A stretch of 64,000 nt of DNA. Origin: a virus. The stretch is taken from positions 62,001-126,000 of IMG/VR virus record IMGVR_UViG_3300032722_000006; one strand, given 5' to 3'. The notes beneath the pieces are model-generated. The model searched no databases. It was given only the letters and a program-made list of their open reading frames with translations, and was not told the origin of the DNA. Made by a program: the position numbers and the translations under genes. Shown here piece by piece: positions 17,748 to 29,316 of the stretch. The number at the start of each line of letters is the position of its first letter. The first letter of the stretch is position 1.

Positions 17748-17771
17748 TACTATGATGCATGAGATTGCACC

Positions 17772-17990
17772 TCAGGGAATTCTGTCGGTTGACCACTGGA
17801 CAGTGATCGCAACGTTGCCGACAGCATCGGTGTGAGGACGTATCCCAACATGATCGTGATGACAGTGCAATTTTTCTCCTTTGCACGCATCGGGAGGCGT
17901 CCTGTAGACGCTCCCTGTGTCCCACCACATGTTTGCTGTCGCGCAAGATGTGCAAAGCATCATCATGACGATCAGGAACCATCTCTTCAT
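17772..17990 (-). CDS. small lipoprotein or exported protein
   Basis: A 72-residue protein beginning MKRWFLIVMMMLCTSC, a basic start, a hydrophobic core and a Cys at a lipobox-like site (residue 16). The remainder contains several His residues (HCHHDHVG) that could bind metal. GAGGTG is 14 bases upstream. Probably modifies the infected cell surface; inference only. Confidence 0.55.
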   Translation of the reverse strand: MKRWFLIVMMMLCTSCATANMWWDTGSVYRTPPDACKGEKLHCHHDHVGIRPHTDAVGNVAITVQWSTDRIP

Positions 17991-18002
17991 CCTGATACAT
18001 AT

Positions 18003-18191
18003 TCACCTCTTTTCCTCCTTGAGGGCATACAGTTCAGGGTGTTTGAGCGTGATGTGATTGACGTAGCAATTCACACAGATGATCGCCGGACACAGTTGGC
18101 AGACCCACGCTTCGCCACCGAAAGGATTGTCTCGGGAGGGTCGTTCATGCTGCTCAACCTGGCTTGAGCATGATGGACATTTCATGTACAT
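18003..18191 (-). CDS. small zinc-ribbon protein
   Basis: A 62-residue protein with four CxxC-type pairs (KCPSCS, CQLCPAIICVNCYVNH). The ATG lies 2 bases after the 3' end of tRNA-Ser(GCT) and has no ribosome site, so tRNA processing would leave a leaderless mRNA. A second ATG two codons in is an alternative start. Function unknown. Confidence 0.6.
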   Translation of the reverse strand: MYMKCPSCSSQVEQHERPSRDNPFGGEAWVCQLCPAIICVNCYVNHITLKHPELYALKEEKR

Positions 18192-18193
18192 TG

Positions 18194-18277
18194 CGGAATC
18201 GGCAGGACTCGAACCTGCAAGACCTTGCGGCTCACGGGTTTAGCAAACCCGCTGTTTAACCATTCACACACGATTCC
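18194..18277 (-). tRNA. tRNA-Ser(GCT)
   Basis: Class II, acceptor GGAATCG/CGATTCC, loop TTGCTAA, G73 as expected for Ser. Confidence 0.92.
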
Positions 18278-18301
18278 ATGTCCCGTACGTGGGACCGACG
18301 T

Positions 18302-18499
18302 TCACCAGCAGCTGAACCCGTTTCCAGGGATACCATTGCAGTAGCAGATCACGCCTGTCGGCCCGGGCGGGATGACGCACCGACGCATTCCATTCGTGTC
18401 GCAGCAGTATGTCACGGGCTGAGCCTCAACTGGTGAAGATTGAACGCCGATGATTGCGAGTGACATGATGACGAGCAAGGTAGTGATGATCTTTTTCAT
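18302..18499 (-). CDS. small secreted Cys-rich protein
   Basis: A 65-residue protein with a clear signal peptide (KKIITTLLVIMSLAIIG, likely cleavage after VEA) and a short mature part with six Cys residues (YCCDTNGMRRC, ICYCNG, FSCW) suited to disulphides. Start 18499 is chosen because TAATAT ends 8 bases before it and no ribosome site is visible. Confidence 0.6.
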   Translation of the reverse strand: MKKIITTLLVIMSLAIIGVQSSPVEAQPVTYCCDTNGMRRCVIPPGPTGVICYCNGIPGNGFSCW

Positions 18500-18507
18500 G
18501 ATCAGAC

Positions 18508-18513
18508 ATATTA
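18508..18513 (-). promoter_or_regulatory. leaderless -10 (TAATAT)
   Basis: Ends 8 bases before ATG 18499, the longest spacing in this promoter class. Confidence 0.4.
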
Positions 18514-18533
18514 CTACGTCAGATGTCACTTGT

Positions 18534-18899
18534 TCAATCAGCCTTTAGACTACCCACGACCCTGTTGATCTCCTGGATAGAGCACGGTCCGAACGCTGCA
18601 CAGGTCGGCTCGTCCTCTTCATCGAGAAAAGGGTGCACCTCAACGTCAGCGAGCTGGGCGCGGAAGATTAGGTCCTCCAATGCTCCGAGCGATTCAACGC
18701 TCATGATGACGGGAGCGAAGGAACCTGACAACCACGTTGCCTCCGCGGGGGTCAACCTGATGTGGACCTCGTCCCCTCGTTCTGCCTCGTTATTGTCAAC
18801 AAGGAACATCATTGACGCATGCGCAATCTGAGCGGCCTGCTCGTTCTTGTGCATGTTCAGATCACGTCTTACCACGATGACTTGCTTCACGTCGTCCAT
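18534..18899 (-). CDS. peptidyl-tRNA hydrolase, Pth2 family
   Basis: A 121-residue protein matching the archaeal/eukaryal-type Pth2 fold: KQVIVVRRDLNMHKNEQAAQIAHA contains the catalytic-region Lys/Asp and the AAQ-HA motif, followed by SGSFAPVI and an acidic C-terminal half. Pth2 releases peptides from peptidyl-tRNA that dropped off ribosomes, which suits a phage with a near-full tRNA set. GGAGGA lies 4 bases before the ATG. It lies between tRNA-Val(GAC) and tRNA-Ser(GCT). Confidence 0.85.
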   Translation of the reverse strand: MDDVKQVIVVRRDLNMHKNEQAAQIAHASMMFLVDNNEAERGDEVHIRLTPAEATWLSGSFAPVIMSVESLGALEDLIFRAQLADVEVHPFLDEEDEPTCAAFGPCSIQEINRVVGSLKAD

Positions 18900-18959
18900 G
18901 GTTTCCTCCGCTTTTCAAAGATCGTACTACGACACCGGCATCCGAGGATGTTGATGTTG

Positions 18960-19031
18960 TGATCCCAGTCGGGTTCGAACCGACGTCCTCCACCGTGTCA
19001 GGGTGGCGCGCTACCGCTGTGCCATGGGATC
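18960..19031 (-). tRNA. tRNA-Val(GAC)
   Basis: Acceptor GATCCCA/TGGGATC, anticodon stem CCACC/GGTGG, loop CTGACAC. Confidence 0.9.
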
Positions 19032-19094
19032 GTAAAGGAGCATGCGAGTGCATGGTGCCTGCTCCTCTAAGTAGGAAGTTCGTCCGTCAGTGCG

Positions 19095-19433
19095 TCACTT
19101 TCCCGGACGTTTCTGCTGAGAACGCTCTCGGCGCTCCTTCGCGCGCATTCGCTTCTCGGGCTCAGCAGACGCGACGGGCGCGGTCGGTGCTCCTACAGCC
19201 TCGACCACCTTCTTCGCGTCCTCAATCTTCGCAAGGATGCGAGCTCGCTGCTTCGCAGCACCGACGCCCTTTCCCAATCGAGAATCGAGCGCATCCAGCT
19301 GTGCCTGAGGCGACAAGCCCGTCCAGTGCTTCAGACGCTCGGTGCCCTCTTCCTGCTGGATCTTCCTGTGGTCGGGTCGGGGTCCACCACCTGTGAACCT
19401 GCGATCAGTGTTCGTCCTCTTTGCTTGTCCCAT
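19095..19433 (-). CDS. basic hypothetical protein
   Basis: A 112-residue, strongly basic protein starting MGQAKRTNTDRRF and ending RAKERRERSQQKRPGK, with a central helix likely to be coiled. AGGTGAAG precedes the ATG at 19433; the longer frame upstream is rejected for lack of a ribosome site. Nucleic-acid binding is possible from charge only. Confidence 0.55.
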   Translation of the reverse strand: MGQAKRTNTDRRFTGGGPRPDHRKIQQEEGTERLKHWTGLSPQAQLDALDSRLGKGVGAAKQRARILAKIEDAKKVVEAVGAPTAPVASAEPEKRMRAKERRERSQQKRPGK

Positions 19434-19488
19434 CGTCTTCACCTGGTCCTTTCGTTCCATCAGACACACGGTGACCATCACCGTGCAG

Positions 19489-19563
19489 CACCCTCGGCAG
19501 GATTCGAACCTGCGTTACTACAGCTTAGAAGGCTGCGGCCTAATCCGTTCGAGCCACGAGGGC
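19489..19563 (-). tRNA. tRNA-Arg(TCT)
   Basis: Loop CTTCTAA on GCAGC/GCTGT; acceptor GCCCTCG/CGAGGGT with a terminal G-U; G73. Confidence 0.9.
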
Positions 19564-19567
19564 ATTG

Positions 19568-19641
19568 TCTTCACGGCAGGATTCGAACCCGCGACCTCTC
19601 GCTTCGGAGGCGAGTGTTCTGTTCCGCTGAACTACATGAAG
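19568..19641 (-). tRNA. tRNA-Arg(CCG)
   Basis: Loop CTCCGAA on CTCGC/GCGAG; acceptor CTTCATG/CGTGAAG. Confidence 0.9.
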
Positions 19642-19645
19642 ATTG

Positions 19646-19720
19646 TCTCCTCGGAGGGATTCGAACCCCCGACACCCGGTTTAGGAAACCGGAGTTCTAT
19701 CCTGGCTGAACTACGAGGAG
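19646..19720 (-). tRNA. tRNA-Arg(CCT)
   Basis: Loop TTCCTAA on CCGGT/ACCGG; acceptor CTCCTCG/CGAGGAG; third Arg tRNA in a row. Confidence 0.9.
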
Positions 19721-19813
19721 ATGAGAAAGCACTTTCACCTGCCGCCGATCCCTACGTGAGACAGCTCACGATCCGTGAACGGGACAAATTATGCTGCGGT
19801 TACTCATGCTATG

Positions 19814-19896
19814 TGCCAACGGAGGGAGTTGCACCCTCACGCTCTTTCGAACGGCGGATTCTGAGTCCGCTGTGACTGCTGTTCCACCACGTTGGC
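19814..19896 (-). tRNA. tRNA-Leu(CAG)
   Basis: Class II, loop CTCAGAA on GCGGA/TCCGC, acceptor GCCAACG/CGTTGGC, T-loop TGCAACT. Confidence 0.9.
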
Positions 19897-19897
19897 A

Positions 19898-20278
19898 TTA
19901 CGTGACCTTCTTGACCCTGCTGACCCACCACCTTCGAGCGAACCTTGAGACGAGATACGCTTCCGCGAGCCGCTTCGATCGCCACACCCTCTGTGCAAGA
20001 GCGCTGGGTGAGTACGATGACGTGACAGTGTATCCTTTCCTGAGACCGTATGCGATCGCTTCAGAATACAAGGCGAGTCCCAATCCTTTTCCTCTGTGCC
20101 CCTGATCGAGGTTTGAGTGCGTCTCGTACACCCTGACGGGATGACCCGCACAGTTTGCTGATGCTTCGACTACATTGACACTTCCGATCTCCTTGCCGTT
20201 GAACTTTAGCTTCACGGTGTAGTCAGTGAAGTTTTCCTTAGGAGTGACGCTGATTGCGTATCCGGCCGGCAGCTGCAT
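19898..20278 (-). CDS. GNAT-family acetyltransferase
   Basis: A 126-residue GNAT fold: strand pairs IGSVNVVEAS and VRVYETH, then the acetyl-CoA pyrophosphate loop GHRGKGLGLALYSEA (R/QxxGxG/A). Substrate unknown; phage GNATs may acetylate host proteins or tRNA. Start 20278 is set by TATGTT ending 6 bases upstream, immediately after the NADAR stop codon, giving it its own promoter within the cluster. The stop lies 2 bases from the 5' end of tRNA-Leu(CAG). Confidence 0.7.
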   Translation of the reverse strand: MQLPAGYAISVTPKENFTDYTVKLKFNGKEIGSVNVVEASANCAGHPVRVYETHSNLDQGHRGKGLGLALYSEAIAYGLRKGYTVTSSYSPSALAQRVWRSKRLAEAYLVSRFARRWWVSRVKKVT

Positions 20279-20284
20279 GAGACC

Positions 20285-20290
20285 AACATA
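20285..20290 (-). promoter_or_regulatory. leaderless extended -10 (TATGTT)
   Basis: GTGG-TATGTT ends 6 bases before ATG 20278; the same ten bases recur at 24991-25000 before a 32-residue gene. Confidence 0.5.
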
Positions 20291-20300
20291 CCACGTCGGT

Positions 20301-20786
20301 CTACGGATTTGCACTCTCTTCTTCGCTCCGACATTCCTCCCTAATTTCCATTAGAAGTCGCCCGAGCCAGTTCTGACCTACACCTTTGTAAACGCCCCAG
20401 AACTTGTCACCCCACGTGTTACCCTCGACCAACGGGATATCTTCTGTCGCAAGTAACATTGACCTAAGAAGGGGGTTCTTGAATTTTTCCTGCAGCAGAT
20501 TCCGCATCACTGTCACCTTCTGTAGGTCCCAGTCAGTGGGTAGCTTGACAGAGTAACCGAGCTTTTTTGCAATGCCCGGTGACGCTGCTTCGCGGATCAT
20601 CTTCTTCGTCACCGGGTCGGATGACTTCGCCGCCTGGTACGCATGCTCCACTGTTGGGTAACGATCACCGTCGACCCAAATTGATGCTGCGTAGAAATTG
20701 CTCAAGAACCCAAACTCACCTCTGAAGTGATCGATTTCTACGGGTTTCTCTGACGGAAGCTGCGGTTGGCGTGTTTCGTCGCTCAT
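20301..20786 (-). CDS. NADAR (YbiA/DUF1768) family N-glycosidase-like protein
   Basis: A 161-residue protein matching NADAR: GFLSNFYAASIWVDGDRYP, TVEHAYQAAKS, the central LGYSVKLPTDWDLQKVTVM and the terminal GNTWGDKFWGVYKGVGQNWLG. Family members cleave N-glycosidic bonds, including in riboflavin-pathway intermediates and ADP-ribosyl adducts, so it could counter ADP-ribosylation or NAD-based defence. The start overlaps the upstream stop (ATGA), coupling it to the transglycosylase-like gene. Confidence 0.85.
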   Translation of the reverse strand: MSDETRQPQLPSEKPVEIDHFRGEFGFLSNFYAASIWVDGDRYPTVEHAYQAAKSSDPVTKKMIREAASPGIAKKLGYSVKLPTDWDLQKVTVMRNLLQEKFKNPLLRSMLLATEDIPLVEGNTWGDKFWGVYKGVGQNWLGRLLMEIREECRSEEESANP

Positions 20787-21322
20787 CTGCTTCTTGTGAC
20801 CTCTTCGCAAACGCTGACGTCATCTTCTTCATCGAGTTCCGTCGCCATGAGCGCCTGGATCCTCGAACCGTCGCCCCAATGGATCTTGGCAACGTTGTCA
20901 GTCGCGTTGTGACAGTGACCGTGTGTGTAAGCAGTCAGAAGGTTGCTGTTCTTCATGCCTGCCTTCTGGCAGGCGGCAATGCTTTCGTCGAGATGGTGCA
21001 ATGCGACGGCGGCTTGCTTCGAGACGTCAGGTGAACACAAAGCTGCTTTTTCTTGATCGTTGAACGGGTGGACCTGGAATGCGCCGAGTGCCTCGCCATG
21101 ATCGCCTCTGACCTTGCATGAAACTACATCATCACGCCACCCACCGGTTTCCCATCGAGCGATCTTGATCAAGGTCTCGACCTTCTGAGGATCTGTCGTC
21201 GTTTGCACGATCGCATCGACGACATTTGTCATCGTGTGAAAATCGTAAGGACCCCAGTTAGAATTCCACGTGCTGTCTGTCAGGTTCATTGCGAAGATGA
21301 GGGCTGCCGTGGCTAGATTCAT
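20783..21322 (-). CDS. lysozyme/transglycosylase-like protein
   Basis: A 179-residue protein with a hydrophobic N-terminus (MNLATAALIFAMNL) that may export it, the catalytic-type Glu in ARWETGGW, GDHGEALGAFQVHPF (the Gly-x-Gln-Val motif of SLT enzymes) and LLTAYTHGHC. Predicted to cleave peptidoglycan. Start 21322 is chosen because the frame upstream is not protein-like; the overlapping ATGA couples it to NADAR. Confidence 0.65.
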   Translation of the reverse strand: MNLATAALIFAMNLTDSTWNSNWGPYDFHTMTNVVDAIVQTTTDPQKVETLIKIARWETGGWRDDVVSCKVRGDHGEALGAFQVHPFNDQEKAALCSPDVSKQAAVALHHLDESIAACQKAGMKNSNLLTAYTHGHCHNATDNVAKIHWGDGSRIQALMATELDEEDDVSVCEEVTRSR

Positions 21323-21427
21323 TCTTGTGTAGACTCCATGATGCCGGCGAGATAGGTGCCGACACCCCGTCATTATACTTCACCTGTAAAAAATGTTTCA
21401 CTGCCATGTGTTCATGATGAATAATTG

Positions 21428-21501
21428 TCTCCTCGGTGGGATTCGAACCCACGACCTCCGGCTTCGCAGACCGGTGCTCTAATCCGCTGAGCTACGGGGA
21501 G
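21428..21501 (-). tRNA. tRNA-Arg(GCG)
   Basis: Loop CTGCGAA on CCGGT/GCCGG, acceptor CTCCCCG/CGAGGAG. An unusual G34 Arg anticodon, present together with tRNA-Arg(ACG). The SLOG gene stop lies within its 5' 23 bases. Confidence 0.88.
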
Positions 21502-21970
21502 ATGATGTTATGAGCCTCCACGGGATATTCGCCTTGACGACGCGGTCTAGCATGTCTGCTGTTCCGCGACTGTCCTGGACGTTATTGTGAAATGCTACGC
21601 AAACATCGATGGGCTCTTCTGCCTTGTGTTCTTTGTCAAGCATCTGCTGGTTTCTGATGGGACCCGCAGCGTTCTTGAACTGAATCCAATCAGCAGGATA
21701 CGCTCTGACCTCAAAGTCCAACGCTTCTGCAACTGCAGCACAGATGATGTCCGCACCCTTGCATGCACCGTGAACTAGGATTGTGCCGGGCCTGTAGCCC
21801 TTCAGAACCTCAACGACTGAGGTGATGTCTGACCACTCCCTGTCACCGGTGACGAGAATTTTCTTGATGATCGTCTCGGAAGGTATGGTTCGACGCTCCT
21901 CATCGTCACGACGCTCGTGATAACGACGTTCGACTTTCTCACGACGAATTTTGCCTGTTCTTTGTTTCAT
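21479..21970 (-). CDS. SLOG/DUF2493-like nucleotide-binding protein
   Basis: A 163-residue protein with a basic N-terminal extension, then the Rossmann-like SLOG core: KKILVTGDREWSD, TILVHGACKGADIICAA, the AYPADW strand and AGPIRNQQMLD. SLOG-family proteins bind or cleave NAD- or nucleotide-derived ligands. The start lies 2 bases after the 3' end of tRNA-Arg(ACG) with no ribosome site; the last 23 bases overlap tRNA-Arg(GCG). Confidence 0.75.
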   Translation of the reverse strand: MKQRTGKIRREKVERRYHERRDDEERRTIPSETIIKKILVTGDREWSDITSVVEVLKGYRPGTILVHGACKGADIICAAVAEALDFEVRAYPADWIQFKNAAGPIRNQQMLDKEHKAEEPIDVCVAFHNNVQDSRGTADMLDRVVKANIPWRLITSSPRSSAD

Positions 21971-21972
21971 GG

Positions 21973-22047
21973 TCTCCCTGGAGGGATTCGAACCCCCGAC
22001 CTTCACGTTCGTAGCGTGCTGCTCTGTCCGGGCTGAGCTACAAGGAG
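21973..22047 (-). tRNA. tRNA-Arg(ACG)
   Basis: Loop CTACGAA; A34 would need deamination to inosine. Acceptor CTCCTTG/CAGGGAG. Confidence 0.88.
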
Positions 22048-22054
22048 ATGATTT

Positions 22055-22279
22055 TCAACGAATGTCGAGTTCAGAAAGTTTGACACAACTAACGTCGCCG
22101 TCGGAGTGGTACCACCCGTCTTCTGACCATTCAACGATGACGTATTCTGGGCCTTTCTTCGAAAGGGCGATGATCGTGCAACCACCGACCTGTTTAGGTC
22201 CACAGCACAAATCACGTAGGAATGCATGTTGACCGATGAGCGTCTTTTTCTTGCCTAACATGTGACGATCGTACATCAT
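22055..22279 (-). CDS. small hypothetical protein
   Basis: A 74-residue protein (MMYDRHMLGKKKTLIG, then GGCTIIALSKKGPEYVIVEW), a small beta-rich domain that could be SH3-like. It follows a partial tRNA remnant. No ribosome site; TAATTC lies about 9 bases upstream. Unknown function. Confidence 0.5.
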   Translation of the reverse strand: MMYDRHMLGKKKTLIGQHAFLRDLCCGPKQVGGCTIIALSKKGPEYVIVEWSEDGWYHSDGDVSCVKLSELDIR

Positions 22280-22305
22280 CAGACAGATGAATTACACTCT
22301 TGCGT

Positions 22306-22345
22306 CCTGGTGATGGGATTCGGACCCACTACCATTTACGTGACA
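22306..22345 (-). pseudogene. tRNA 3'-half remnant
   Basis: GTGGG-TCCGAAT-CCCAT is a good T-arm followed by a CACCAGG acceptor strand, but no matching CCTGGTG 5' half exists; the HNH gene on the other strand begins where the rest should be. Confidence 0.5.
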
Positions 22346-22352
22346 CGTGTTG

Positions 22353-22358
22353 TATATT
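22353..22358 (+). promoter_or_regulatory. leaderless -10 (TATATT)
   Basis: Ends 7 bases before the HNH start codon at 22366. Confidence 0.4.
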
Positions 22359-22365
22359 CGTATAC

Positions 22366-22926
22366 ATGAACACTTGCCTAGAATGTCACACAGATACGTA
22401 TAACGCTATGTTTTGTTCACGAAAATGTGCGGTTACGTTCAATAATCGTGGTGTTCAACACAACAAGGTCAAACCAAGAAATTGCGCAAAGTGCGGTGAC
22501 GTTTATTTCAACGTTTGCGGTCGACGTTCTCGCCTCTGCGTGAAATGCAGAGAAGAATTTGATAACAGAAGCGATGAGATTGACAATCGAACGTTGCGTT
22601 TCTATTGGGATAAGACAGGGCAAATAAGCTCTCCTGCAACGTTTCACGAGGTACGACATCACGCCAACAGGCGAAACAAACACCGTCTTCAAGCATGTCA
22701 ACGATGTGGTTATTCAAAACACATCGAGTATGCACACATCAAACCCATAATCAGCTTTGATCTTGATACACCGATCAAGATCGTCAACGCTGAATCGAAC
22801 ATTCTGCTCTTGTGTCCAAATTGTCATTGGGAATTTGATAATGGACATCTAAAACTTGTGCCGGGAATGGGACTCGAACCCACGCATGTCACTGCTTATG
22901 AAACAGCCGCTCTGCCTCTGAGCTAA
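22366..22926 (+). CDS. HNH homing endonuclease, antisense to the tRNA array
   Basis: A 186-residue protein with three Cys4-type zinc motifs (CLECHTDTYNAMFCSRKC, CAKCGDVYFNVC, CVKC), a linker, and the HNH core CQRCGYSKHIEYAHIKPI...LLCPNCHWEFDNGH. It is the only + strand gene in the first array. Its last 22 codons run antisense through tRNA-Met(CAT), and its start abuts half of a destroyed tRNA, so insertion probably broke one tRNA. Confidence 0.8.
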   Translation: MNTCLECHTDTYNAMFCSRKCAVTFNNRGVQHNKVKPRNCAKCGDVYFNVCGRRSRLCVKCREEFDNRSDEIDNRTLRFYWDKTGQISSPATFHEVRHHANRRNKHRLQACQRCGYSKHIEYAHIKPIISFDLDTPIKIVNAESNILLLCPNCHWEFDNGHLKLVPGMGLEPTHVTAYETAALPLS

Positions 22927-22932
22927 CCCGGC
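22859..22932 (-). tRNA. tRNA-Met(CAT)
   Basis: Loop TTCATAA, acceptor GCCGGGT/TCCCGGC (last pair T-T). Elongator-type D-arm; could alternatively be an Ile2 tRNA if C34 is lysidine-modified. Confidence 0.85.
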
Positions 22933-23039
22933 ATGATGGGACGTAACCACCACGCCCCCACCACATTCTCGCTTTCACCTTCAACGTTGGTGTACGTTTT
23001 CCGCATATTCAATTTGCGAATCAGACGGTTACTCGCTCG

Positions 23040-23122
23040 TACACCCAGAGGGACTCGAACCCCCACGCCCTTTCGGGCACTGCAGCCTAAGTGCAGCACG
23101 TCTACCATTCCGCCATGAGTGC
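23040..23122 (-). tRNA. tRNA-Leu(TAG)
   Basis: Class II, loop CTTAGGC on CTGCA/TGCAG, variable stem GCCC/GGGC. Confidence 0.9.
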
Positions 23123-23217
23123 ATGCAGGGGATTCTATGAACCCCTGTCAATGACGCGATCATCCGTTGTCATTAACTAGCGACGATCATTGTCGATGAT
23201 GACGATCGTCGTTATTG

Positions 23218-23290
23218 TGCCCCCGGAAGGAATTGCACCTTCGACATCCGGTTTCGAAGACCGGCGTTCTTTCTGCTGAACTACGGGGGC
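23218..23290 (-). tRNA. tRNA-Arg(TCG)
   Basis: Loop CTTCGAA on CCGGT/ACCGG, acceptor GCCCCCG/CGGGGGC. Its 5' end is within about 2 bases of the RNase P RNA 3' end. Confidence 0.9.
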
Positions 23291-23292
23291 GT

Positions 23293-23640
23293 GGGTGGTA
23301 CGTAAGCGGGATTTTGTCTAGGATGATCATTCCTCTGTGATGTGTGTCACCACACATCTATAGCAACAACCCGCATGCTCGGGCGAACAGCCCTCAAACG
23401 CACACTGTTTGTCTTGCTCCGGGAGGGACCCCTTACCGTCTGCATTGCTGCATTCGTGGTGGGCTCTTACTCCACCGTTTCACCATCACCTGATCCTCTT
23501 TTGTGAGGCCATCGGCTGTCTTTTCTCTGTTGAGTCTTCCGTCACCTTGCGATGCCCAGTCGTTAGCTGGTTCCCTGTTCTATGGAGTCCCGACTTTCCT
23601 CTGCGCGTATAGTACGCAGCGATCATCTTTCTCCACCCCT
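23293..23640 (-). ncRNA. rnpB: RNase P RNA (bacterial type)
   Basis: About 348 bases with the conserved regions in order: P1 GGGTGG/CCACCC at the two ends; P2 GATGATC/GATCATC; P3 CTGCG/CGCAG; GAGGAAAGTCGGGACTCC (CR I); GGTGAAACGGTGG and GTAAGAGCCCACC (P15 region, CR II-III); CGGTAAGGGG and CCCGGAGCAAGACAAA (CR IV); and AGACAAAATCCCGCTTA (CR V) at the 3' end. The L15 loop reads GAGTAAGAG rather than GCGGTAAGAG, so the GGU that pairs with tRNA CCA is not intact. It lies head-to-tail between tRNA-Leu(CAA) and tRNA-Arg(TCG) with 0-2 bases on each side. The protein subunit is not in the window; it may use the host one. Confidence 0.93.
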
Positions 23641-23641
23641 G

Positions 23642-23724
23642 TGCCATCGGAGGGAATTGCACCCTCACACCCTCGCGGGCGCCGGAGTTTGAAACCGGTG
23701 TGTCTGCTGTTTCACCACGATGGC
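23642..23724 (-). tRNA. tRNA-Leu(CAA)
   Basis: Class II, loop TTCAAAC with a T-T pair at 31-39, acceptor GCCATCG/CGATGGC. Its 3' end directly precedes the RNase P RNA. Confidence 0.88.
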
Positions 23725-23829
23725 ATTACTTTTTCGTTTAGATTCTGAAATTTGTTTTCGAGTTTCAATTGTATGTTTTCTTCCTCGAAATCTGTGTGTT
23801 CCGGTGATAGAGTGACAATTAGGACACAA
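23665..23829 (-). pseudogene. HNH endonuclease remnant overlapping tRNA-Leu(CAA)
   Basis: The frame reads LCPNCHSITGTHRFRGRKH followed by IETRKQISESKRKSN, the end of an HNH domain plus a NUMOD3-like motif, and then continues into the tRNA before stopping. No upstream half or start codon remains; it now abuts and slightly overlaps the gene ending at 23819. Confidence 0.6.
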
Positions 23830-24325
23830 ATATTCGAGGCTTGCCCGATCCCACCCATGCGTTGATTTTCACTTTTTCCCATTGTTCTGGTGGACTACCG
23901 TTCTTGCCTAGCTGCAGGATGTTCATTGTCCTGTGCCAACCTTCGTACAATTCGTACCCGTCCACCCTCTTGATCACGATGATCGGTTCGTTCTTTCCTG
24001 TTGAGACCGCGAGTTCCTTGTGCCTTGCCATTCGTTCTTCGTCATTGTGAACTTCGTATGGATTTATCGCACCAAATTGTCTCTCGAGGATGCGCCTGCG
24101 TGTGTCTGGAGCGAAGTCACTCAAGTTGACTATGATGACCTGTTGATGCCAATTGAGGCGATCGAATGCCTTGTACAGGGGATGTTCACCCATCCCAGTC
24201 CTATAGAAATCGTGTAGTACGTATTCAGGGATGTTTGGGTACTTCCTGCGAAGTTCCTTGTAGAGACCTTTCCATCTCATCTCAATGATCAGGCTGATCG
24301 CCTCACGAAGCAACGTCAACGACAT
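23819..24325 (-). CDS. tagged protein of unknown function
   Basis: A 168-residue protein starting MSLTLLREAISLIIEM, a variant of the N-terminal tag shared by several genes. The rest contains VIKRVDGYELYEGWHRTMNILQL, resembling ParB-like nuclease or DndB-type segments (GxHR), and APDTRRRILERQFGAINPYEV. A class-2 AATAGTTA element lies 5 bases before the ATG. The C-terminus overlaps an HNH remnant. Function unknown. Confidence 0.65.
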   Translation of the reverse strand: MSLTLLREAISLIIEMRWKGLYKELRRKYPNIPEYVLHDFYRTGMGEHPLYKAFDRLNWHQQVIIVNLSDFAPDTRRRILERQFGAINPYEVHNDEERMARHKELAVSTGKNEPIIVIKRVDGYELYEGWHRTMNILQLGKNGSPPEQWEKVKINAWVGSGKPRIFVS

Positions 24326-24330
24326 GTCAG

Positions 24331-24338
24331 TAACTATT
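24331..24338 (-). promoter_or_regulatory. class-2 element AATAGTTA
   Basis: Separated by 5 bases (CTGAC) from the ATG at 24325; no ribosome site. Confidence 0.5.
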
Positions 24339-24341
24339 CTG

Positions 24342-24425
24342 TGTCATCGAGGGGACTCGAACCCCTACGGCCTTTCGGCCACAAGCACCTCAAGCTTGCG
24401 CGGCTACCAATTACGCCACGATGAC
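24342..24425 (-). tRNA. tRNA-Leu(GAG), copy 1
   Basis: Class II, loop TTGAGGT on CAAGC/GCTTG, acceptor GTCATCG/CGATGAC. Confidence 0.88.
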
Positions 24426-24505
24426 ATTGGAGGAGGGAATCTGGTCGCCTCCCTCCGAGGGCGTTTTATGCTGATCGTCAGCAATTTCTTGCCTCCCAGG
24501 CCAGG

Positions 24506-24588
24506 TGCTATCGAGGGGAGTTGCACCCCTACGCCCTTTTGGGCACAACGTTCTCACCGTTGCGTGACTGCTGTTCCACCACGATAGC
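24506..24588 (-). tRNA. tRNA-Leu(GAG), copy 2
   Basis: Class II, loop GTGAGAA on CAACG/CGTTG; a different body from copy 1, so not a recent duplication. Confidence 0.88.
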
Positions 24589-24600
24589 GTGTGATGTCTG

Positions 24601-24675
24601 TGACCCCAACGGGATTCGAACCCGTGTTCCCTGCTTGAAAGGCAGGTCGCCTAGGCCTCTAGCATTGATGGGGCC
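24601..24675 (-). tRNA. tRNA-Glu(TTC)
   Basis: Loop CTTTCAA on CCTGC/GCAGG, acceptor GGCCCCA/TGGGGTC. Confidence 0.9.
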
Positions 24676-24802
24676 ATTTTCCACCTGCTACTGCTCAGCT
24701 TTTTTCGGCCTGCCGTAGCTTTCCGGGTGATGGAAACCGTTGATTTGGTGACAATGCGAAGTTCGTTTTCCGTTCAAATTCGGTGTCCTTTCGCATTGTC
24801 GG

Positions 24803-24877
24803 GGTGACTGACGGGATTCGAACCCGCGAATATCCGATTCACAGTCGGACGCCTTAGGCCTCTTGGCTACAGCCACC
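24803..24877 (-). tRNA. tRNA-His(GTG)
   Basis: Loop CTGTGAA; C73 with a G available at -1, the bacterial His identity pair. Confidence 0.93.
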
Positions 24878-24885
24878 ATGAAACA

Positions 24886-24984
24886 CTACTTCTTCTTGTT
24901 CTTCTTTTCGAACTGATCCTTGTAGACGTACATTGCAACGACAACGATGACGACGGCTGCAGCAATCTTGAGTTTGTTGTTCAT
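24886..24984 (-). CDS. 32-residue membrane microprotein
   Basis: MNNKLKIAAAVVIVVVAMYVYKD then a basic tail FEKKNKKK: one transmembrane helix, N-out or N-in undetermined. It has the same GTGGTATGTT promoter, ending 6 bases before the ATG, as the GNAT gene, which argues it is expressed. It sits between tRNA-Thr(TGT)/Leu tRNAs and tRNA-His. Confidence 0.55.
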   Translation of the reverse strand: MNNKLKIAAAVVIVVVAMYVYKDQFEKKNKKK

Positions 24985-24990
24985 ATAGAG

Positions 24991-24996
24991 AACATA
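24991..24996 (-). promoter_or_regulatory. leaderless extended -10 (TATGTT)
   Basis: TG-G-TATGTT, 6 bases before ATG 24984. Confidence 0.5.
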
Positions 24997-25025
24997 CCAC
25001 ACCGGCTGGTGTTAGTACACTCAGG

Positions 25026-25097
25026 AGCTGACGAAGGGATTCGAACCCTCACACGGGACTTTACAGGAGTCCAACCCGACCGTTGGGCGACATCAGC
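25026..25097 (-). tRNA. tRNA-Thr(TGT)
   Basis: Stem GGACT/AGTCC, loop CCTGTAA with C at position 33; acceptor GCTGATG/CGTCAGC. Confidence 0.8.
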
Positions 25098-25108
25098 ACG
25101 TACCTTTC

Positions 25109-25180
25109 ACTTTCGCTCAGGACTTGAACCTGATCTTAGGCTTGGACAGCCCCGTGCAACCGTTACACTAGCCTCAAGAG
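25109..25180 (-). tRNA. degenerate tRNA, anticodon unclear
   Basis: Good D-arm (GTGTAACGGTTGCAC) and T-arm TCAGG-TTCAAGT-CCTGA, but the acceptor has two mismatches and the anticodon arm (GGGCTGTCCAAGCCT) does not give a 7-base loop with T33. Confidence 0.45.
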
Positions 25181-25191
25181 TTACTCAGTCG

Positions 25192-25270
25192 TGGTCCCAG
25201 AGGGATTCGAACCCTCACGCATTCGCAGCGATTTTTAAGATCGCCGTGTCTACCGTTCCACCATGAGACC
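25192..25270 (-). tRNA. tRNA-Leu(TAA)
   Basis: Class II, loop CTTAAAA on GCGAT/ATCGC, acceptor GGTCTCA/TGGGACC. Confidence 0.9.
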
Positions 25271-25288
25271 AGGTTCATCTCTTTCACC

Positions 25289-25375
25289 TGCATTCGATGG
25301 GACTCGAACCCATAAGCCTCGTCAGAGGCGCCAGCCTTTTTGTCGGCCCGCGTATGCCATTTCCGCCACGAATAT
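25289..25375 (-). tRNA. degenerate Leu-like tRNA
   Basis: Class II outline with a fine T-arm ATGGG-TTCGAGT-CCCAT and variable stem GCCTC/GAGGC, but the anticodon region GGCCGACAAAAAGGCT lacks a regular loop and pair 1-72 is A-C. Possibly a decaying Leu(CAA). Confidence 0.4.
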
Positions 25376-25394
25376 TGATGGTTACTTGAAACGG

Positions 25395-25467
25395 AGCGGA
25401 TGACGGGATTCGAACCCGTGTGTCCAGAGTGGCGCTCTGGTGCCTGAAACCTCTCGGCCACACCCGC
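25395..25467 (-). tRNA. tRNA-Gly(GCC)
   Basis: Stem CCAGA/TCTGG, loop GCGCCAC with C33; acceptor GCGGGTG/CATCCGC. Confidence 0.82.
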
Positions 25468-25471
25468 ATGG

Positions 25472-25544
25472 AGCTGACGATGGGACTCGAACCCATGTGT
25501 TCCTCTTTACCGAAGAGGGGCGCCTGCCTCTGCGCTACGTCAGC
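25472..25544 (-). tRNA. tRNA-Thr(GGT)
   Basis: Stem CCTCT/AGAGG, loop TCGGTAA with C33, acceptor GCTGACG/CGTCAGC; TCCA follows the acceptor. Confidence 0.85.
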
Positions 25545-25549
25545 GTTGA

Positions 25550-25670
25550 GTCGAGAGAGGGAGTCGGACCCACATGCCCTTCAGATGCCTACGACATCGT
25601 CCGGGCGGCCCGTGTTGGAACACGTGCTGTGCCTGCCGGTTACACCACTGAGGATCGTGCCTCAGGCCAT
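25550..25670 (-). other. tRNA-like degenerate stretch
   Basis: A T-arm-like GTGGG-TCCGACT-CCCTC and a TCTCGAC acceptor strand (nearly that of the adjacent tRNA-Cys) end a 120-base stretch in which no complete cloverleaf can be drawn; GTGTAACCGGCAGGCAC resembles a D-arm. Confidence 0.35.
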
Positions 25671-25674
25671 GCGT

Positions 25675-26418
25675 TTACTGGGTCGGAGTCGAGAGTCGGA
25701 CTTGAACCGACATACAGCTGTTTTGCAGACAGCTCGCTGAATCATTCGCGTACCTCGACGTAAATTGTGCAATTCTTTCTTGAAGTTGATCAATCGTGAT
25801 CAATGATTTTGCATTCTTTCGTTGATTCTCTGTGTGACGAACTAGACGACAATTAGCAGGATGTGCTATCAACGTTGGATCGATCCCGAATTTGAAACCA
25901 TCAGCGATCGAAATCAGGTGATCACGTGACACTCCGTTCAAATTTCCTCCTCTGTTAGAGGCTGAATACCACCCGTATTGTTTAAGCAGATCAAGATCGA
26001 AATGCTCTGGGTAGTCATACACGTTGAACGTAAAGAGGCACAAGTACTTGTAACTCTCGCGTGAACTCCGTTGTTCGGCATGAAATCCCTTGTAGCACTC
26101 TACGTTACAAAATCGATGCTTTTGACGTCCTCGACGGCCGTACACACGATTGGGTTTCCCACACAAGTCACACTTGAAATCATGTCCGGTAAGCGATCTA
26201 CCAACGCCCATACCCTTCCTAGGAGAAGGTCGACCCTTCATTGTTTGTCGCGTTTTTTCCCTTGATTCTGCGCTTTGATGACGATGATGTGATGCGCAAC
26301 TCTGTGTGCAGTGTTTGCGTCTCTTTGGAGATTTGAACTGCTTCTCAGTGAGAAGCAGTTCAAACGAACTACCGCATGGACAGATGAACGCGTATGACTT
26401 ACGTGATACCTGATACAC
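25675..26418 (-). CDS. HNH-type homing endonuclease spanning tRNA-Cys
   Basis: A 247-residue protein: zinc pairs CPCGSSFELL and HCTQSCASHHRH, a basic linker with NUMOD3-like RPSPRKGMG, CDLCGKPNRV with RFCNVEC, then the catalytic region GVSRDHLISIADGFKFGI and HPANCRLVRHTENQRKN, ending with a helical DNA-binding segment. The frame then passes through all of tRNA-Cys before stopping. GTG start at 26418; TACAAT ends 5 bases before it, again suggesting a leaderless message. Confidence 0.75.
   Translation of the reverse strand: MYQVSRKSYAFICPCGSSFELLLTEKQFKSPKRRKHCTQSCASHHRHQSAESREKTRQTMKGRPSPRKGMGVGRSLTGHDFKCDLCGKPNRVYGRRGRQKHRFCNVECYKGFHAEQRSSRESYKYLCLFTFNVYDYPEHFDLDLLKQYGWYSASNRGGNLNGVSRDHLISIADGFKFGIDPTLIAHPANCRLVRHTENQRKNAKSLITIDQLQERIAQFTSRYANDSASCLQNSCMSVQVRLSTPTQ
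25687..25759 (-). tRNA. tRNA-Cys(GCA)
   Basis: Loop CTGCAAA on GCTGT/ACAGC; entirely contained in the 3' end of the HNH reading frame on the same strand. Confidence 0.9.
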
Positions 26419-26448
26419 GTCAAATTGTAATCTGATGTACCAGATTGT

Positions 26449-26958
26449 TCAAGAAAGCGCTTCCCATTCTTGATTGATGTCATCCCATCGCATGATGCGA
26501 TTGAGAAGCGTTATGTTTAGTCCATCAGTACGTTTGTCGTTTGGATCTGCGTACAATGTTGGGGGGTTGTCATCTTCATCAACACGAAATTGCATTGTGT
26601 TCAGAAGCTCTTTGGGAGACATTCGTTGGGGTTGACCACCCAAGCTTCTTAGCATGACGATCCATCTCCTCGCAGCGTTTGGGAACATCATCAGTACCTG
26701 TTCGGGAGTTAGGATTCCTCCGTATGCCGGTGCAGTCGAAACGTTCGGTCCAGCGCTTCTTCCTCGAGGAGCCGGTTCCTTGTATGCATCCATGAACGCC
26801 TCACTGAGGCCTTCGACGTTGATGTCTCCCACACGAGCAGGATCGTCAAGATCTCGATCGTCTGCATCATCACGGCTGTTCGCACCACGTGGCAATCTTG
26901 CATGATCCGCGACCGCCTCACGGATTAGGCGCCTGAGCTGCTTCAAGGAAATCTTCAT
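26449..26958 (-). CDS. tagged protein of unknown function
   Basis: A 169-residue protein starting MKISLKQLRRLIREAV, the clearest copy of the shared N-terminal peptide, followed by an acidic disordered region (DDADDRDLDD) and a C-terminal domain with LTPEQVLMMFPNAARRWIVML and LNRIMRWDDINQEWE. A class-2 AATACTTA element ends 4 bases before the ATG. Virion-internal location is hypothesised from the tag. Confidence 0.65.
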   Translation of the reverse strand: MKISLKQLRRLIREAVADHARLPRGANSRDDADDRDLDDPARVGDINVEGLSEAFMDAYKEPAPRGRSAGPNVSTAPAYGGILTPEQVLMMFPNAARRWIVMLRSLGGQPQRMSPKELLNTMQFRVDEDDNPPTLYADPNDKRTDGLNITLLNRIMRWDDINQEWEALS

Positions 26959-26962
26959 GTCC

Positions 26963-26970
26963 TAAGTATT
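26963..26970 (-). promoter_or_regulatory. class-2 element AATACTTA
   Basis: Four bases (GGAC) separate it from the ATG at 26958. Confidence 0.5.
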
Positions 26971-26975
26971 CGTTG

Positions 26976-27047
26976 TCCACACAGTTGGAGTTGAACCAAC
27001 ACCTCCGGGGCTTCACTCCGGCGCGCGACCACCTACGCAATGTGTGG
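26976..27047 (-). tRNA. tRNA-Phe(GAA), copy 1
   Basis: Acceptor CCACACA/TGTGTGG, loop GTGAAGC with an A-C closing mismatch; a divergent Phe-type tRNA. Confidence 0.7.
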
Positions 27048-27051
27048 ATAG

Positions 27052-27124
27052 CGGTGAAGGTCGGAATTGAACCGACGCGACCCTGCTCTTCAGGCAGGTG
27101 CTCTACCAACTGAGCTACTTCACC
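27052..27124 (-). tRNA. tRNA-Phe(GAA), copy 2
   Basis: Canonical loop CTGAAGA on CCTGC/GCAGG, acceptor GGTGAAG/CTTCACC. Confidence 0.92.
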
Positions 27125-27134
27125 ATGTTTCTGG

Positions 27135-27207
27135 AGCTAGCAGTGGGAGTCGAACCCACGTGTTCCTCTTTACGGGAGAGGGGCGCCTGCCTCTGCGCTA
27201 TGCTAGC
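27135..27207 (-). tRNA. tRNA-Thr(CGT)
   Basis: Stem CCTCT/AGAGG, loop CCCGTAA with C33; D- and anticodon arms nearly identical to tRNA-Thr(GGT), so these two are paralogues. Confidence 0.87.
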
Positions 27208-27215
27208 ATACGTTG

Positions 27216-27288
27216 TCAGGGTCGTGGGACTCGAACCCACATTCTCTCGCGTCCGAGGCGAGCGGGGCTCCATATCCCCTTCACCCTG
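27216..27288 (-). tRNA. tRNA-Pro(CGG)
   Basis: Loop CTCGGAC on CTCGC/GCGAG, acceptor CAGGGTG/GACCCTG. Confidence 0.87.
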
Positions 27289-27292
27289 ATGG

Positions 27293-27367
27293 TCGGAATG
27301 GCGGGAGTTGAACCCACGATCTCTCGTCCCCCAGACGAGCGCGATAACCAGGCTTCGCTACATTCCG
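27293..27367 (-). tRNA. tRNA-Pro(GGG)
   Basis: Loop CTGGGGG on CTCGT/ACGAG, acceptor CGGAATG/CATTCCG; the stop codon of the upstream gene lies in its acceptor strand. Confidence 0.9.
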
Positions 27368-28152
27368 ATGATTGCTTTCGGGAATCTCTTCTTGGCGTAT
27401 TCGAGCCACTCGTACCTCACCTGAACAAGTACGTTACGAATTTCGACTGCATCACAGCCTTTCTTGACCGCCGCCGTAGCGAGTTCATCAAGATGTTCAT
27501 CGATGACCTTGATGAAGGGTCTCCGCGTACGCTTGGCGAGGTGATAAAATCCTGCGACGAACGCTTCTTTTTCTGCGTCAGAGAGCATGTACCTTGCGAA
27601 AGTCCTAGGACTGTTCCATACGCTGTCTGGGATTGACATCAAGTCCTGGCTAGCTTGAATTCCTCCGAGCAATTTTTCGTCCGACTGGACAGAGTGTTCA
27701 AACTCGTGCCTGATGACCTCGTACGATTGTTGCTGGATCATCGAGAGGTGTTGAGGCTTCATGATTCCTGTCGTTGAATCGACAAAAATCTTGATGGAGA
27801 GCAGGTCCTTGATGGGAGACCATCCTCCTGATATTCCGACCTTGTCGACCGGAGCAGGCTTGTTGAGCAAGTAGATCATTAGTTGCACCGTCATCGCAGG
27901 AGGTGCGTTCGGATCGGTTCCCAAGGCCCGTGATCTTTCACGACGACCTTCGGGTGTTCCGAACCAGTCCTGCCTCTTCATGAATGCCGGCCACGACTGC
28001 AGGTACTTCATGTTGATGCCGCCTTGCTTGTTGACCTTGTCCATCACCTTCTTGCATGCACGGATCAATTTCTGCGTCACCATCCTCGTGAACGAGTCGA
28101 TCTTTGATTCTGCAAGAAGCTCAATGACGACCTGTTCGTACAACGTATGCAT
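27358..28152 (-). CDS. putative zinc metallopeptidase
   Basis: A 264-residue protein with HEFEH (H-E-x-x-H) near residue 160 in SYEVIRHEFEHSVQS, flanked by an amphipathic helix and followed by a long helical C-terminus; the layout fits a zincin, although the third ligand is not obvious. The N-terminus MHTLYEQVVIELLAES is a weak match to the shared tag. Start 28152 follows a class-2 AATAGTTA by 5 bases. Its stop codon overlaps tRNA-Pro(GGG). Confidence 0.55.
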   Translation of the reverse strand: MHTLYEQVVIELLAESKIDSFTRMVTQKLIRACKKVMDKVNKQGGINMKYLQSWPAFMKRQDWFGTPEGRRERSRALGTDPNAPPAMTVQLMIYLLNKPAPVDKVGISGGWSPIKDLLSIKIFVDSTTGIMKPQHLSMIQQQSYEVIRHEFEHSVQSDEKLLGGIQASQDLMSIPDSVWNSPRTFARYMLSDAEKEAFVAGFYHLAKRTRRPFIKVIDEHLDELATAAVKKGCDAVEIRNVLVQVRYEWLEYAKKRFPKAIIGM

Positions 28153-28157
28153 GAATG

Positions 28158-28165
28158 TAACTATT
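28158..28165 (-). promoter_or_regulatory. class-2 element AATAGTTA
   Basis: Five bases (CATTC) before ATG 28152. Confidence 0.5.
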
Positions 28166-28173
28166 CTCATCTG

Positions 28174-28246
28174 TCGGGGTGGTGGGACTCGAACCCACGG
28201 CAGCCTGCTTGTAAGGCAGGTGATCTAGCCGCTGATCTACACCCCG
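28174..28246 (-). tRNA. tRNA-Val(TAC)
   Basis: Loop CTTACAA on CCTGC/GCAGG, acceptor CGGGGTG/CACCCCG. Confidence 0.92.
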
Positions 28247-28252
28247 ATTGTG

Positions 28253-28323
28253 TCAACGCGCCGGGATTCGAACCCGGGTTTCCTGCTTGTGATGCAGGCG
28301 CTCTGCCGTTGAGCTACGCATTG
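28253..28323 (-). tRNA. tRNA-Val(CAC)
   Basis: Loop ATCACAA on CCTGC/GCAGG, acceptor CAATGCG/CGCGTTG. Confidence 0.9.
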
Positions 28324-28326
28324 AAA

Positions 28327-28349
28327 GGAACGCAAGTTGTCAATGAACG
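28327..28349. repeat. 23-bp repeat, copy 1
   Basis: Contains CGCAAGTTGTCAATG and is identical over 23 bases to 48450-48472. Both copies sit 3-5 bases upstream of a tRNA 5' end and are followed (on +) by a hairpin, here GGAACG/CGTTCC. Confidence 0.7.
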
Positions 28350-28375
28350 GGAACGTCATACTGGCGTTCCATCCG

Positions 28376-28449
28376 TCAGCGAGGGGAGATTCGAACTCCC
28401 GAAAACCTGTATCCAAAACAGGTGCCCTAGGCCTCTAGGCGACTCGCTG
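28376..28449 (-). tRNA. tRNA-Pro(TGG)
   Basis: Loop TTTGGAT on CCTGT/ACAGG, acceptor CAGCGAG/CTCGCTG. Confidence 0.9.
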
Positions 28450-28649
28450 GTCTACTTCTGTCTTCCGTCGGGAGTCTCTTCCCGGCTAGCCACTTTCAAC
28501 CCTTTAAGGGGCGTGGCAATCGAAACGGCAGTACGCCTGAGGTATGGGACGTAAGGCAACAGACGCTTCCGCGCCGTTCGCTCTCACTCGTCCTACCTGT
28601 TAGCATACTCGACATCATTTGAATGACTCGTTTCGTAATCTATCTATGG
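28450..28649. other. 200-base non-coding spacer in tRNA array
   Basis: No protein-like frame. Short pairings are visible (GGGAGTCTCTTCCC, CCCTTTAAGGGG, GCCAC with GTGGC) but no RNA family I recognise. Confidence 0.4.
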
Positions 28650-28724
28650 TGATCCCAAGGGGATTCGAACCCCTATTTCTGCGATGAGAACGCAGCTGCC
28701 TAAGCCGTTAGCAATGATGGGACC
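28650..28724 (-). tRNA. tRNA-Glu(CTC)
   Basis: Loop TTCTCAT on CTGCG/CGCAG, acceptor GGTCCCA/TGGGATC. Confidence 0.9.
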
Positions 28725-28732
28725 GTCGTGAG

Positions 28733-28765
28733 TATACATTACCCTCTTCAAGAAGAGGTGTACAC
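28733..28765 (-). terminator. hairpin after the 28.8-30.8 kb operon
   Basis: CCTCTT-CTTG-AAGAGG within an imperfect outer GTGTACA/TGTATAC pairing, 20 bases past the stop at 28784; no U-tract. Confidence 0.35.
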
Positions 28766-28783
28766 GGAAAACGCTTCACACGT

Positions 28784-29056
28784 TCACTTTGTTATGGGCT
28801 GTTTCACTATCTTCAACAATGCACCCTGTGTCCATCCACTTCCGTCAGGCCCAAGAACGTACACGTCACGGCCATCAAGTCCCTTGACGGCGATGACCAA
28901 CGCAACGTTTCCAACCTTGAGCTTTGCAATGTGACGCAGATCCTTGCCGAAATATGCGCCGCCGGGCATGTTCGTCAGTTCAATCTCTCCATTGTCAGAA
29001 GTTGCTGACCATTCATGGGGCGTGACGAGTTGACCTGCCTTGAACAGTGATGTCAT
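28784..29056 (-). CDS. small beta-rich hypothetical protein
   Basis: A 90-residue protein (GQLVTPHEWSATSDNGEIEL..., KLKVGNVALVIAVKGLDGRDVYVL) that looks like an SH3-like barrel. ATGA overlap couples it to the upstream membrane protein. Last gene of the VWA operon. Confidence 0.6.
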   Translation of the reverse strand: MTSLFKAGQLVTPHEWSATSDNGEIELTNMPGGAYFGKDLRHIAKLKVGNVALVIAVKGLDGRDVYVLGPDGSGWTQGALLKIVKQPITK

Positions 29057-29316
29057 TCTTCGTCGTTGCCGTCCTTCTCCTTCTTACTTAGGATCGTCTC
29101 CAGCGCTGCGAGACCTTCGTTGAGAATCTTCGAACACGTCCAGATCAGCGACGTAATGACGAAGATGATGACAGCCTTCTCACCCTTGCCGGCGCAGTCG
29201 ACCACCATTCCAGCAATGACGATGAGCATGAAGGCGACCTTGATGAAGACACCGAAAGTGCCTCCGAACAAAGGGTTTTCGGGATCGTGAGGGTGAGGCT
29301 TAGGCATGATGTTCAT
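29053..29316 (-). CDS. small membrane protein
   Basis: An 87-residue protein with two hydrophobic helices (GVFIKVAFMLIVIAGMVV and AVIIFVITSLIWTC) and a charged C-terminus (SKKEKDGNDEE). GGAGG lies 9 bases before the ATG. Between the VWA gene and the SH3-like gene. Function unknown. Confidence 0.65.
   Translation of the reverse strand: MNIMPKPHPHDPENPLFGGTFGVFIKVAFMLIVIAGMVVDCAGKGEKAVIIFVITSLIWTCSKILNEGLAALETILSKKEKDGNDEE

What the first reader, a model, noticed from the sequence alone, without database searches (positions are those of the whole stretch)
23293..23640. Phage-encoded RNase P RNA wedged between two tRNAs
The - strand carries all five conserved regions of bacterial RNase P RNA in order, with matching P1 (GGGTGG/CCACCC), P2 (GATGATC/GATCATC) and P3 stems. 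It starts immediately after the tRNA-Leu(CAA) 3' end and ends within about 2 bases of the tRNA-Arg(TCG) 5' end. In a common transcript RNase P would therefore cut its own 3' boundary while maturing tRNA-Arg, and tRNA-Leu 3' processing would make its 5' end. A full-length RNase P RNA in a phage tRNA array is unusual as far as I know.
Basis: partly seen in the sequence, partly recalled or inferred. Interest (0 to 1): 0.92.

Follow-up and report, generated by a model that had tools for sequence, protein, structure and literature searches.

The report
Phage-borne RNase P RNA between tRNAs
A large virus of bacteria carries its own copy of the RNA enzyme that trims transfer RNAs, fitted almost without a gap between two transfer-RNA genes, and dozens of other uncultured phages do the same although hardly any known laboratory phage does.

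Summary
Confirmed. Window 23287-23640 (-) is a full-length class A RNase P RNA (Rfam RF00010, 224 bits; cut-off 100). Only 3 nt separate it from tRNA-Leu(CAA) and 2 nt from tRNA-Arg(TCG). The window lies in a 145-kb IMG/VR virus record with T4-like genes and about 52 tRNAs. An identical locus occurs in a second record. A relative (82% identical RNA, same tRNA order) sits on a 340-kb contig with T4-type capsid and terminase genes. Between these two, ten helix pairs changed on both sides and stayed paired, two of them in the catalytic P4 pseudoknot, so the fold is under selection. Scans found 68 viral contigs (about 45 sequence clusters) with RNase P RNA inside tRNA clusters, always co-oriented; 28 clusters abut a tRNA within 8 nt, against 0 of 63 bacterial rnpB genes near one. 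None of 69 such records encodes RnpA, so the likeliest mechanism is that the phage RNA borrows host RnpA and matures phage tRNAs, its own ends being cut by tRNA processing (inferred, untested). Abutment largely follows tight array packing; only the 3' side shows modest excess. Curated phage genomes hold no clear case; no paper was found in the library.

The parts
23287..23640 (-). RNase P RNA gene, class A (covariance-model span; P1-to-P1 core 23293-23638)
   Evidence: RF00010 224.4 bits, full length
23633..23638 (-). P1 5' strand GGGTGG
   Evidence: sequence, model alignment
23293..23298 (-). P1 3' strand CCACCC
   Evidence: sequence, model alignment
23592..23601 (-). CR I GAGGAAAGTC; P4 5' strand 23588-23596 (AAGTCGGGA)
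23303..23317 (-). CR V ACAAAATCCCGCTTA; P4 3' strand 23304-23311 (TCCCGCTT)
   Evidence: eight P4 pairs all standard, two swapped compensatorily in G110
23639..23641 (-). 3-nt spacer CAG between the tRNA-Leu discriminator and P1; presumed 5' boundary of the mature RNA
   Evidence: processing inferred
23291..23292 (-). 2-nt spacer AC between P1 and tRNA-Arg +1; presumed 3' boundary, set by RNase P cleavage of pre-tRNA-Arg
   Evidence: processing inferred
23642..23724 (-). tRNA-Leu(CAA), immediately upstream, no encoded CCA
   Evidence: ARAGORN, RF00005 46.2 bits, tails
23218..23290 (-). tRNA-Arg(TCG), immediately downstream, no encoded CCA
   Evidence: ARAGORN, RF00005 67.8 bits, tails
14570..48905 (-). 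region holding about 51 predicted tRNA genes, all on the minus strand, in two main blocks
58015..59001 (-). ORF matching the C-terminal half of actinobacterial CCA tRNA nucleotidyltransferase (HD domain); possible partner in tRNA 3' maturation
   Evidence: TIGR02692 2.5e-33 over profile 201-420/466, below curated cut-off; PF01966, PF12627

Best explanation
The element is a functional RNase P RNA encoded by a T4-like, probably jumbo phage with a large tRNA array. It is most likely transcribed within the tRNA array; the tRNA flanks are processed away (3' end of tRNA-Leu, 5' end of tRNA-Arg), which releases the RNase P RNA. The RNA then assembles with the host RnpA protein, since no phage RnpA was found, and cleaves the 5' leaders of the phage's roughly 50 pre-tRNAs, giving the phage its own supply of the catalytic subunit during infection. 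Shown: identity, intact conserved elements, structural selection, conserved position, recurrence in other phages, absence of a recognisable RnpA. Inferred: co-transcription, end formation, use of host RnpA, catalytic activity, benefit to the phage.
For: RF00010 full-length hit. T4-like genes in the same record: tail-fibre attachment/RNA ligase, late sigma factor, baseplate wedge, NAMPT. Identical locus in a second IMG/VR record, 3,354 bp at 100%. Relative G110 (340,433 bp, 82% identity) with the same order Arg-Arg-Arg-Met-Leu-Arg(TCG)-RNaseP-Leu and terminase plus gp23 capsid on the same contig. Ten double compensatory pairs between the two, against 0-3 for slid partners. 68 viral contigs with RNase P RNA in tRNA clusters, 68/68 on the strand of the nearest tRNA, against 0/63 bacterial rnpB genes within about 60 nt of a tRNA. 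0/69 records with RnpA PF00825 and 0/46 with the HARP-type family TIGR03875. 11-row phage-only clade holding the window, SH-aLRT 97.
Against: No transcript, 5' or 3' end or activity data. The minimum-free-energy fold is only moderately better than shuffles (z -2.8). Abutment on the 5' side is not more frequent than tRNA-tRNA abutment in the same arrays (17/45 clusters against 30%, p 0.17); on the 3' side the excess is modest (22/45, p 0.006). The neighbouring tRNAs lack an encoded CCA, which bacterial RNase P RNAs usually bind. RnpA could be too divergent for the profile, or lie outside incomplete records. The promoter scan around the array shows no excess over shuffles.
Confidence: 0.72

Rival explanations
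1. Decoy or takeover: the phage RNA mainly captures the host RnpA protein and so weakens or redirects host RNase P, shutting down host tRNA maturation, rather than adding processing capacity.
For: No RnpA in any of 69 records, so the phage RNA would have to compete for host RnpA.
Against: Conserved CR I and CR V motifs and compensatory changes in the catalytic P4 helix suggest a working ribozyme, which a decoy would not need; but the search patterns preselected intact motifs. Position in tRNA arrays and co-orientation point to tRNA processing.
Confidence: 0.12
2. Passenger: a bacterial rnpB copy captured together with tRNAs, transcribed or not, with no function for the phage.
For: tRNA arrays collect genes; one phage group nests among Actinomycetota rnpB, which shows that capture happens.
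Against: 18% divergence between the window and G110 with 10 double compensatory pairs and the same position; window RNA in a phage-only clade.
Confidence: 0.06
3. Assembly artefact, or a bacterial chromosome piece classed as viral.
For: Some IMG/VR and INPHARED records with rnpB are indeed bacterial or prophage flanks.
Against: Second record with an identical 3.35-kb locus; relative with capsid and terminase on the same contig; phage genes in the window's own record.
Confidence: 0.02
4. Cis-acting ribozyme: each RNase P RNA cleaves the pre-tRNA-Arg fused to its own 3' end, as a self-excising cassette, with little or no work in trans.
For: 2-nt spacer to tRNA-Arg +1; similar 3' fusions in about half of the clusters.
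Against: A 2-nt linker from P1 probably cannot reach the active site (own judgement from published structures, not tested here); some relatives have no adjacent downstream tRNA; S-domain elements for trans substrate recognition are conserved in the window copy.
Confidence: 0.08

Closest known systems
Bacterial class A RNase P RNA (rnpB, RF00010)
   Same: Full-length model match, CR I and CR V, P4 pairing, CCA-binding GGU motif and T-loop-binding elements present in the sequence
   Different: Encoded by a phage, inside a tRNA array, 2-3 nt from tRNAs; no rnpA found; closest relatives are other phages
Yeast mitochondrial RNase P RNA RPM1
   Same: RNase P RNA gene in one transcription unit with flanking tRNAs: tRNA-fMet, RPM1, tRNA-Pro (PMC3797045)
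   Different: Organelle, not a virus; highly reduced AT-rich RNA; different partner protein
Phage tRNA arrays with tmRNA or GOLLD RNA
   Same: Large structured RNAs carried among phage-type tRNA clusters (GOLLD in a mycobacterial 32-tRNA cluster, PMC6582537); tmRNA lies beside RNase P RNA in some loci here
   Different: Those are not tRNA-processing ribozymes
Extra rnpB homologues in Mycobacterium austroafricanum
   Same: Additional RNase P RNA copies thought to be horizontally acquired, altered specificity domain, beside an endonuclease gene (PMC9569102)
   Different: Reported in bacterial chromosomes; no phage origin or tRNA-array position was shown
Pyrobaculum type T RNase P RNA (lacks most of the specificity domain; own knowledge)
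   Same: Some of the phage RNAs found here lack most of the S domain (L216, L217, L218, L221)
   Different: Archaeal; the window copy itself keeps its S domain

Membership tests
Bacterial class A RNase P RNA (RF00010) | Covariance-model score over the gathering cut-off, full length | tested here: met
   224.4 against 100 bits, model 1-367
Bacterial class A RNase P RNA (RF00010) | Conserved regions I and V forming the P4 pseudoknot | tested here: met
   All eight P4 pairs standard; two compensatory swaps in relative G110
Bacterial class A RNase P RNA (RF00010) | Helices conserved by compensatory change in relatives | tested here: met
   10 double changes between window and G110, slid controls 0-3
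Bacterial class A RNase P RNA (RF00010) | Partner protein RnpA | tested here: inconclusive
   No PF00825 in 69 virus records; bacterial rnpA is normally unlinked to rnpB, so the host may supply it
Bacterial class A RNase P RNA (RF00010) | Endonucleolytic 5' maturation of pre-tRNA | not testable with these tools
   Needs biochemistry
Phage-encoded gene | On the same contig as phage hallmark genes | tested here: met
   T4-like genes in G000; terminase and gp23 capsid with RNase P RNA in G110, G059, G058, G076 and others
Protein-only RNase P (HARP) | TIGR03875 protein | tested here: not met
   0 of 46 records

The most novel reading that the evidence does not exclude
Jumbo phages maintain a phage-specific lineage of RNase P RNAs, including versions without most of the S domain, which are excised from tRNA-array transcripts by the very processing they catalyse and which reprogramme host RNase P by taking over its protein subunit during infection.
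Probability: 0.3. Interest if true: 0.93.

Novelty: new variant of a known kind. Interest (0 to 1): 0.82.

Why it matters
RNase P is the classic trans-acting ribozyme, and phage tRNAs have been studied since T4 as clients of the host enzyme. A phage that brings its own catalytic subunit, placed so that tRNA processing would release it, suggests that tRNA maturation can limit phages with large tRNA sets or is contested between phage and host. The many phage versions, some without most of the S domain, offer natural variants of minimal RNase P for biochemistry.

Tried and rejected
Class B pattern scan of viral contigs: no hits. INPHARED searches: hits were a Salmonella chromosome, an Acinetobacter prophage flank, a Microcystis record with bacterial genes and two unverified fecal contigs. 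Cases without tRNA arrays (334-bit Acinetobacter-like loci and similar) were set aside as probable bacterial or prophage flanks. Host assignment: bacteria sharing the CR I-P4 sequence are mostly Actinomycetota, but only about 70% alike over 146 nt, and the CCA-enzyme fragment is of actinobacterial type: a hint, not a call. Tight abutment as proof of self-processing was rejected as too strong, because 30% of tRNA-tRNA gaps in these arrays are also 8 nt or less. Ten literature searches found no report of phage RNase P RNA in the open-access library; subscription papers and preprints were not searchable.

Full report
What is there. The minus strand of window 23287-23640 matches the Rfam model of bacterial class A RNase P RNA over its full length (RF00010, 224.4 bits, gathering score 100, E 7e-73). 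It is the only such hit in the window and in the whole 145,283-bp record. CR I (GAGGAAAGTC, 23601-23592) and CR V (ACAAAATCCCGCTTA, 23317-23303) form P4 with eight standard pairs. Elements that recognise the tRNA T loop (GGTGAAA...GTAAGAG) and its CCA end (GGGTT) are present in the alignment (their roles are from established knowledge of RNase P RNA).

Position. tRNA-Leu(CAA) ends with discriminator A at 23642 and P1 begins at 23638: three bases between. P1 ends at 23293 and tRNA-Arg(TCG) begins at 23290: two bases between. Neither tRNA encodes CCA. About 51 tRNA genes lie on the same strand in the window.

It is a phage. The record is virus-classed and carries a T4-type tail-fibre attachment/RNA ligase, an ATP-dependent DNA ligase, nicotinamide phosphoribosyltransferase, a late sigma factor and a baseplate wedge match. 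Terminase and T4 capsid were not found on this fragment. A second IMG/VR record, G024, is identical over the 3,354-bp locus. A relative, G110 (340,433 bp), has an RNase P RNA 82% identical over 329 nt in the same tRNA order, Arg(ccg)-Arg(cct)-Arg(acg)-Met-Leu(tag)-Arg(tcg)-RNaseP-Leu, on a contig with terminase and gp23 capsid genes. The window phage may thus be a fragment of a jumbo phage (inference).

It is under selection. Between the window and G110, of the pairs that are standard in the window, 70 are unchanged, 9 are kept through a one-sided change, 10 through changes on both sides, and 5 are broken. Sliding the partner by 1-3 bases gives 0-3 double changes. Two of the ten are in P4, the catalytic core.

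It is recurrent. Three productive pattern scans of IMG/VR, checked with RF00010, gave about 120 virus records with a match. Of the 115 tabulated, 68 have at least three tRNAs within 5 kb. They fall into about 45 clusters at 75% identity; 28 clusters have a tRNA within 8 nt on at least one side and 11 on both. All 68 lie on the strand of the nearest tRNA. In bacteria, 0 of 63 rnpB loci had a tRNA within about 60 nt. Conserved neighbour pairs recur: Leu/Arg(TCG), Thr/Gly, Cys/Gly, Gly/Thr. The records are mostly fragments, and the patterns required CR I or CR V, so the counts are lower bounds and motif conservation is partly built in.

How special is the tight fit? In the same arrays 30% of 970 tRNA-tRNA gaps are 8 nt or less. 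RNase P RNA meets that on the 3' side in 22 of 45 clusters (p 0.006) and on the 5' side in 17 of 45 (p 0.17). General packing explains much of it, with a modest excess on the side where RNase P itself would cut.

Origin. In a quick maximum-likelihood tree with bacterial references, the window RNA lies in an 11-row phage-only group (SH-aLRT 97), while another phage group nests among Actinomycetota. Labels need 5 changes, of which starred branches force 2. So more than one acquisition is likely, with one older phage lineage. Long branches and a short alignment limit this.

Mechanism. No RnpA (0/69) and no HARP-type protein (0/46) was found, so the RNA presumably uses host RnpA. The most economical reading is a tRNA-array transcript from which the RNase P RNA is released by tRNA 3' processing upstream and by RNase P cleavage downstream, after which it processes the phage tRNAs. 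The yeast mitochondrial unit tRNA-fMet, RPM1, tRNA-Pro is a precedent for the layout (PMC3797045). None of the processing steps was observed.

Variants. Some phage copies have lost most of the S domain: L216 (207 nt), L217 (236 nt), L218 (243 nt) and L221 (196 nt), while keeping CR I, CR V and P1-P4.

Novelty. Curated phage genomes (50,697 records) show no clear case, and the open-access literature searches found none. Related reports are extra, possibly transferred rnpB copies in mycobacteria (PMC9569102) and GOLLD RNA in a tRNA cluster (PMC6582537). The RNA belongs to a known family; its carrier, its setting and the shrunken versions elsewhere are what is new.

Noticed in passing
L216, L217, L218, L221 (RNase P RNA at 1501-1707, 1501-1736, 1501-1743, 1501-1696): Viral RNase P RNAs of about 196-243 nt that lack most of the S domain but keep CR I, CR V and the catalytic core.
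   Followed up: partly
L154 636-1755, L165 10778-11873, L018, L027: tmRNA genes in the same phage loci as RNase P RNA, so some phages carry tRNAs, tmRNA and RNase P RNA together.
   Followed up: no
window 58015-59001 (-): ORF matches only the C-terminal half of actinobacterial CCA-adding enzyme (TIGR02692 positions 201-420); no N-terminal catalytic part was found next to it.
   Followed up: partly
window 20301-20810 (-) and L029 12253-13689 (+): NADAR domain protein inside the tRNA array and a nicotinamide phosphoribosyltransferase elsewhere in the record: possible NAD salvage or anti-defence genes.
   Followed up: no
window 12195-13463 (-) and 31944-32816 (-): Two RNA ligase-like genes, which could repair cleaved tRNAs.
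   Followed up: no
window 14570-14661 (-): ARAGORN predicts a tRNA with anticodon TTA (would read UAA) and an encoded CCA; Rfam does not reach its cut-off there.
   Followed up: no
window 412-11560 (+): Four large ORFs (958, 702, 991, 868 aa) without any PHROGs or Pfam match, probably structural or tail genes.
   Followed up: no
L059 (MW495066.1) and L060 (CAKLQF020000022.1): Public phage records that look bacterial at the rnpB locus: 'Microcystis phage MaAM05' has fabI, engB and glyS there; the Acinetobacter record is a prophage flank with integrase, coaD, rnpB and tRNA-Met.
   Followed up: partly
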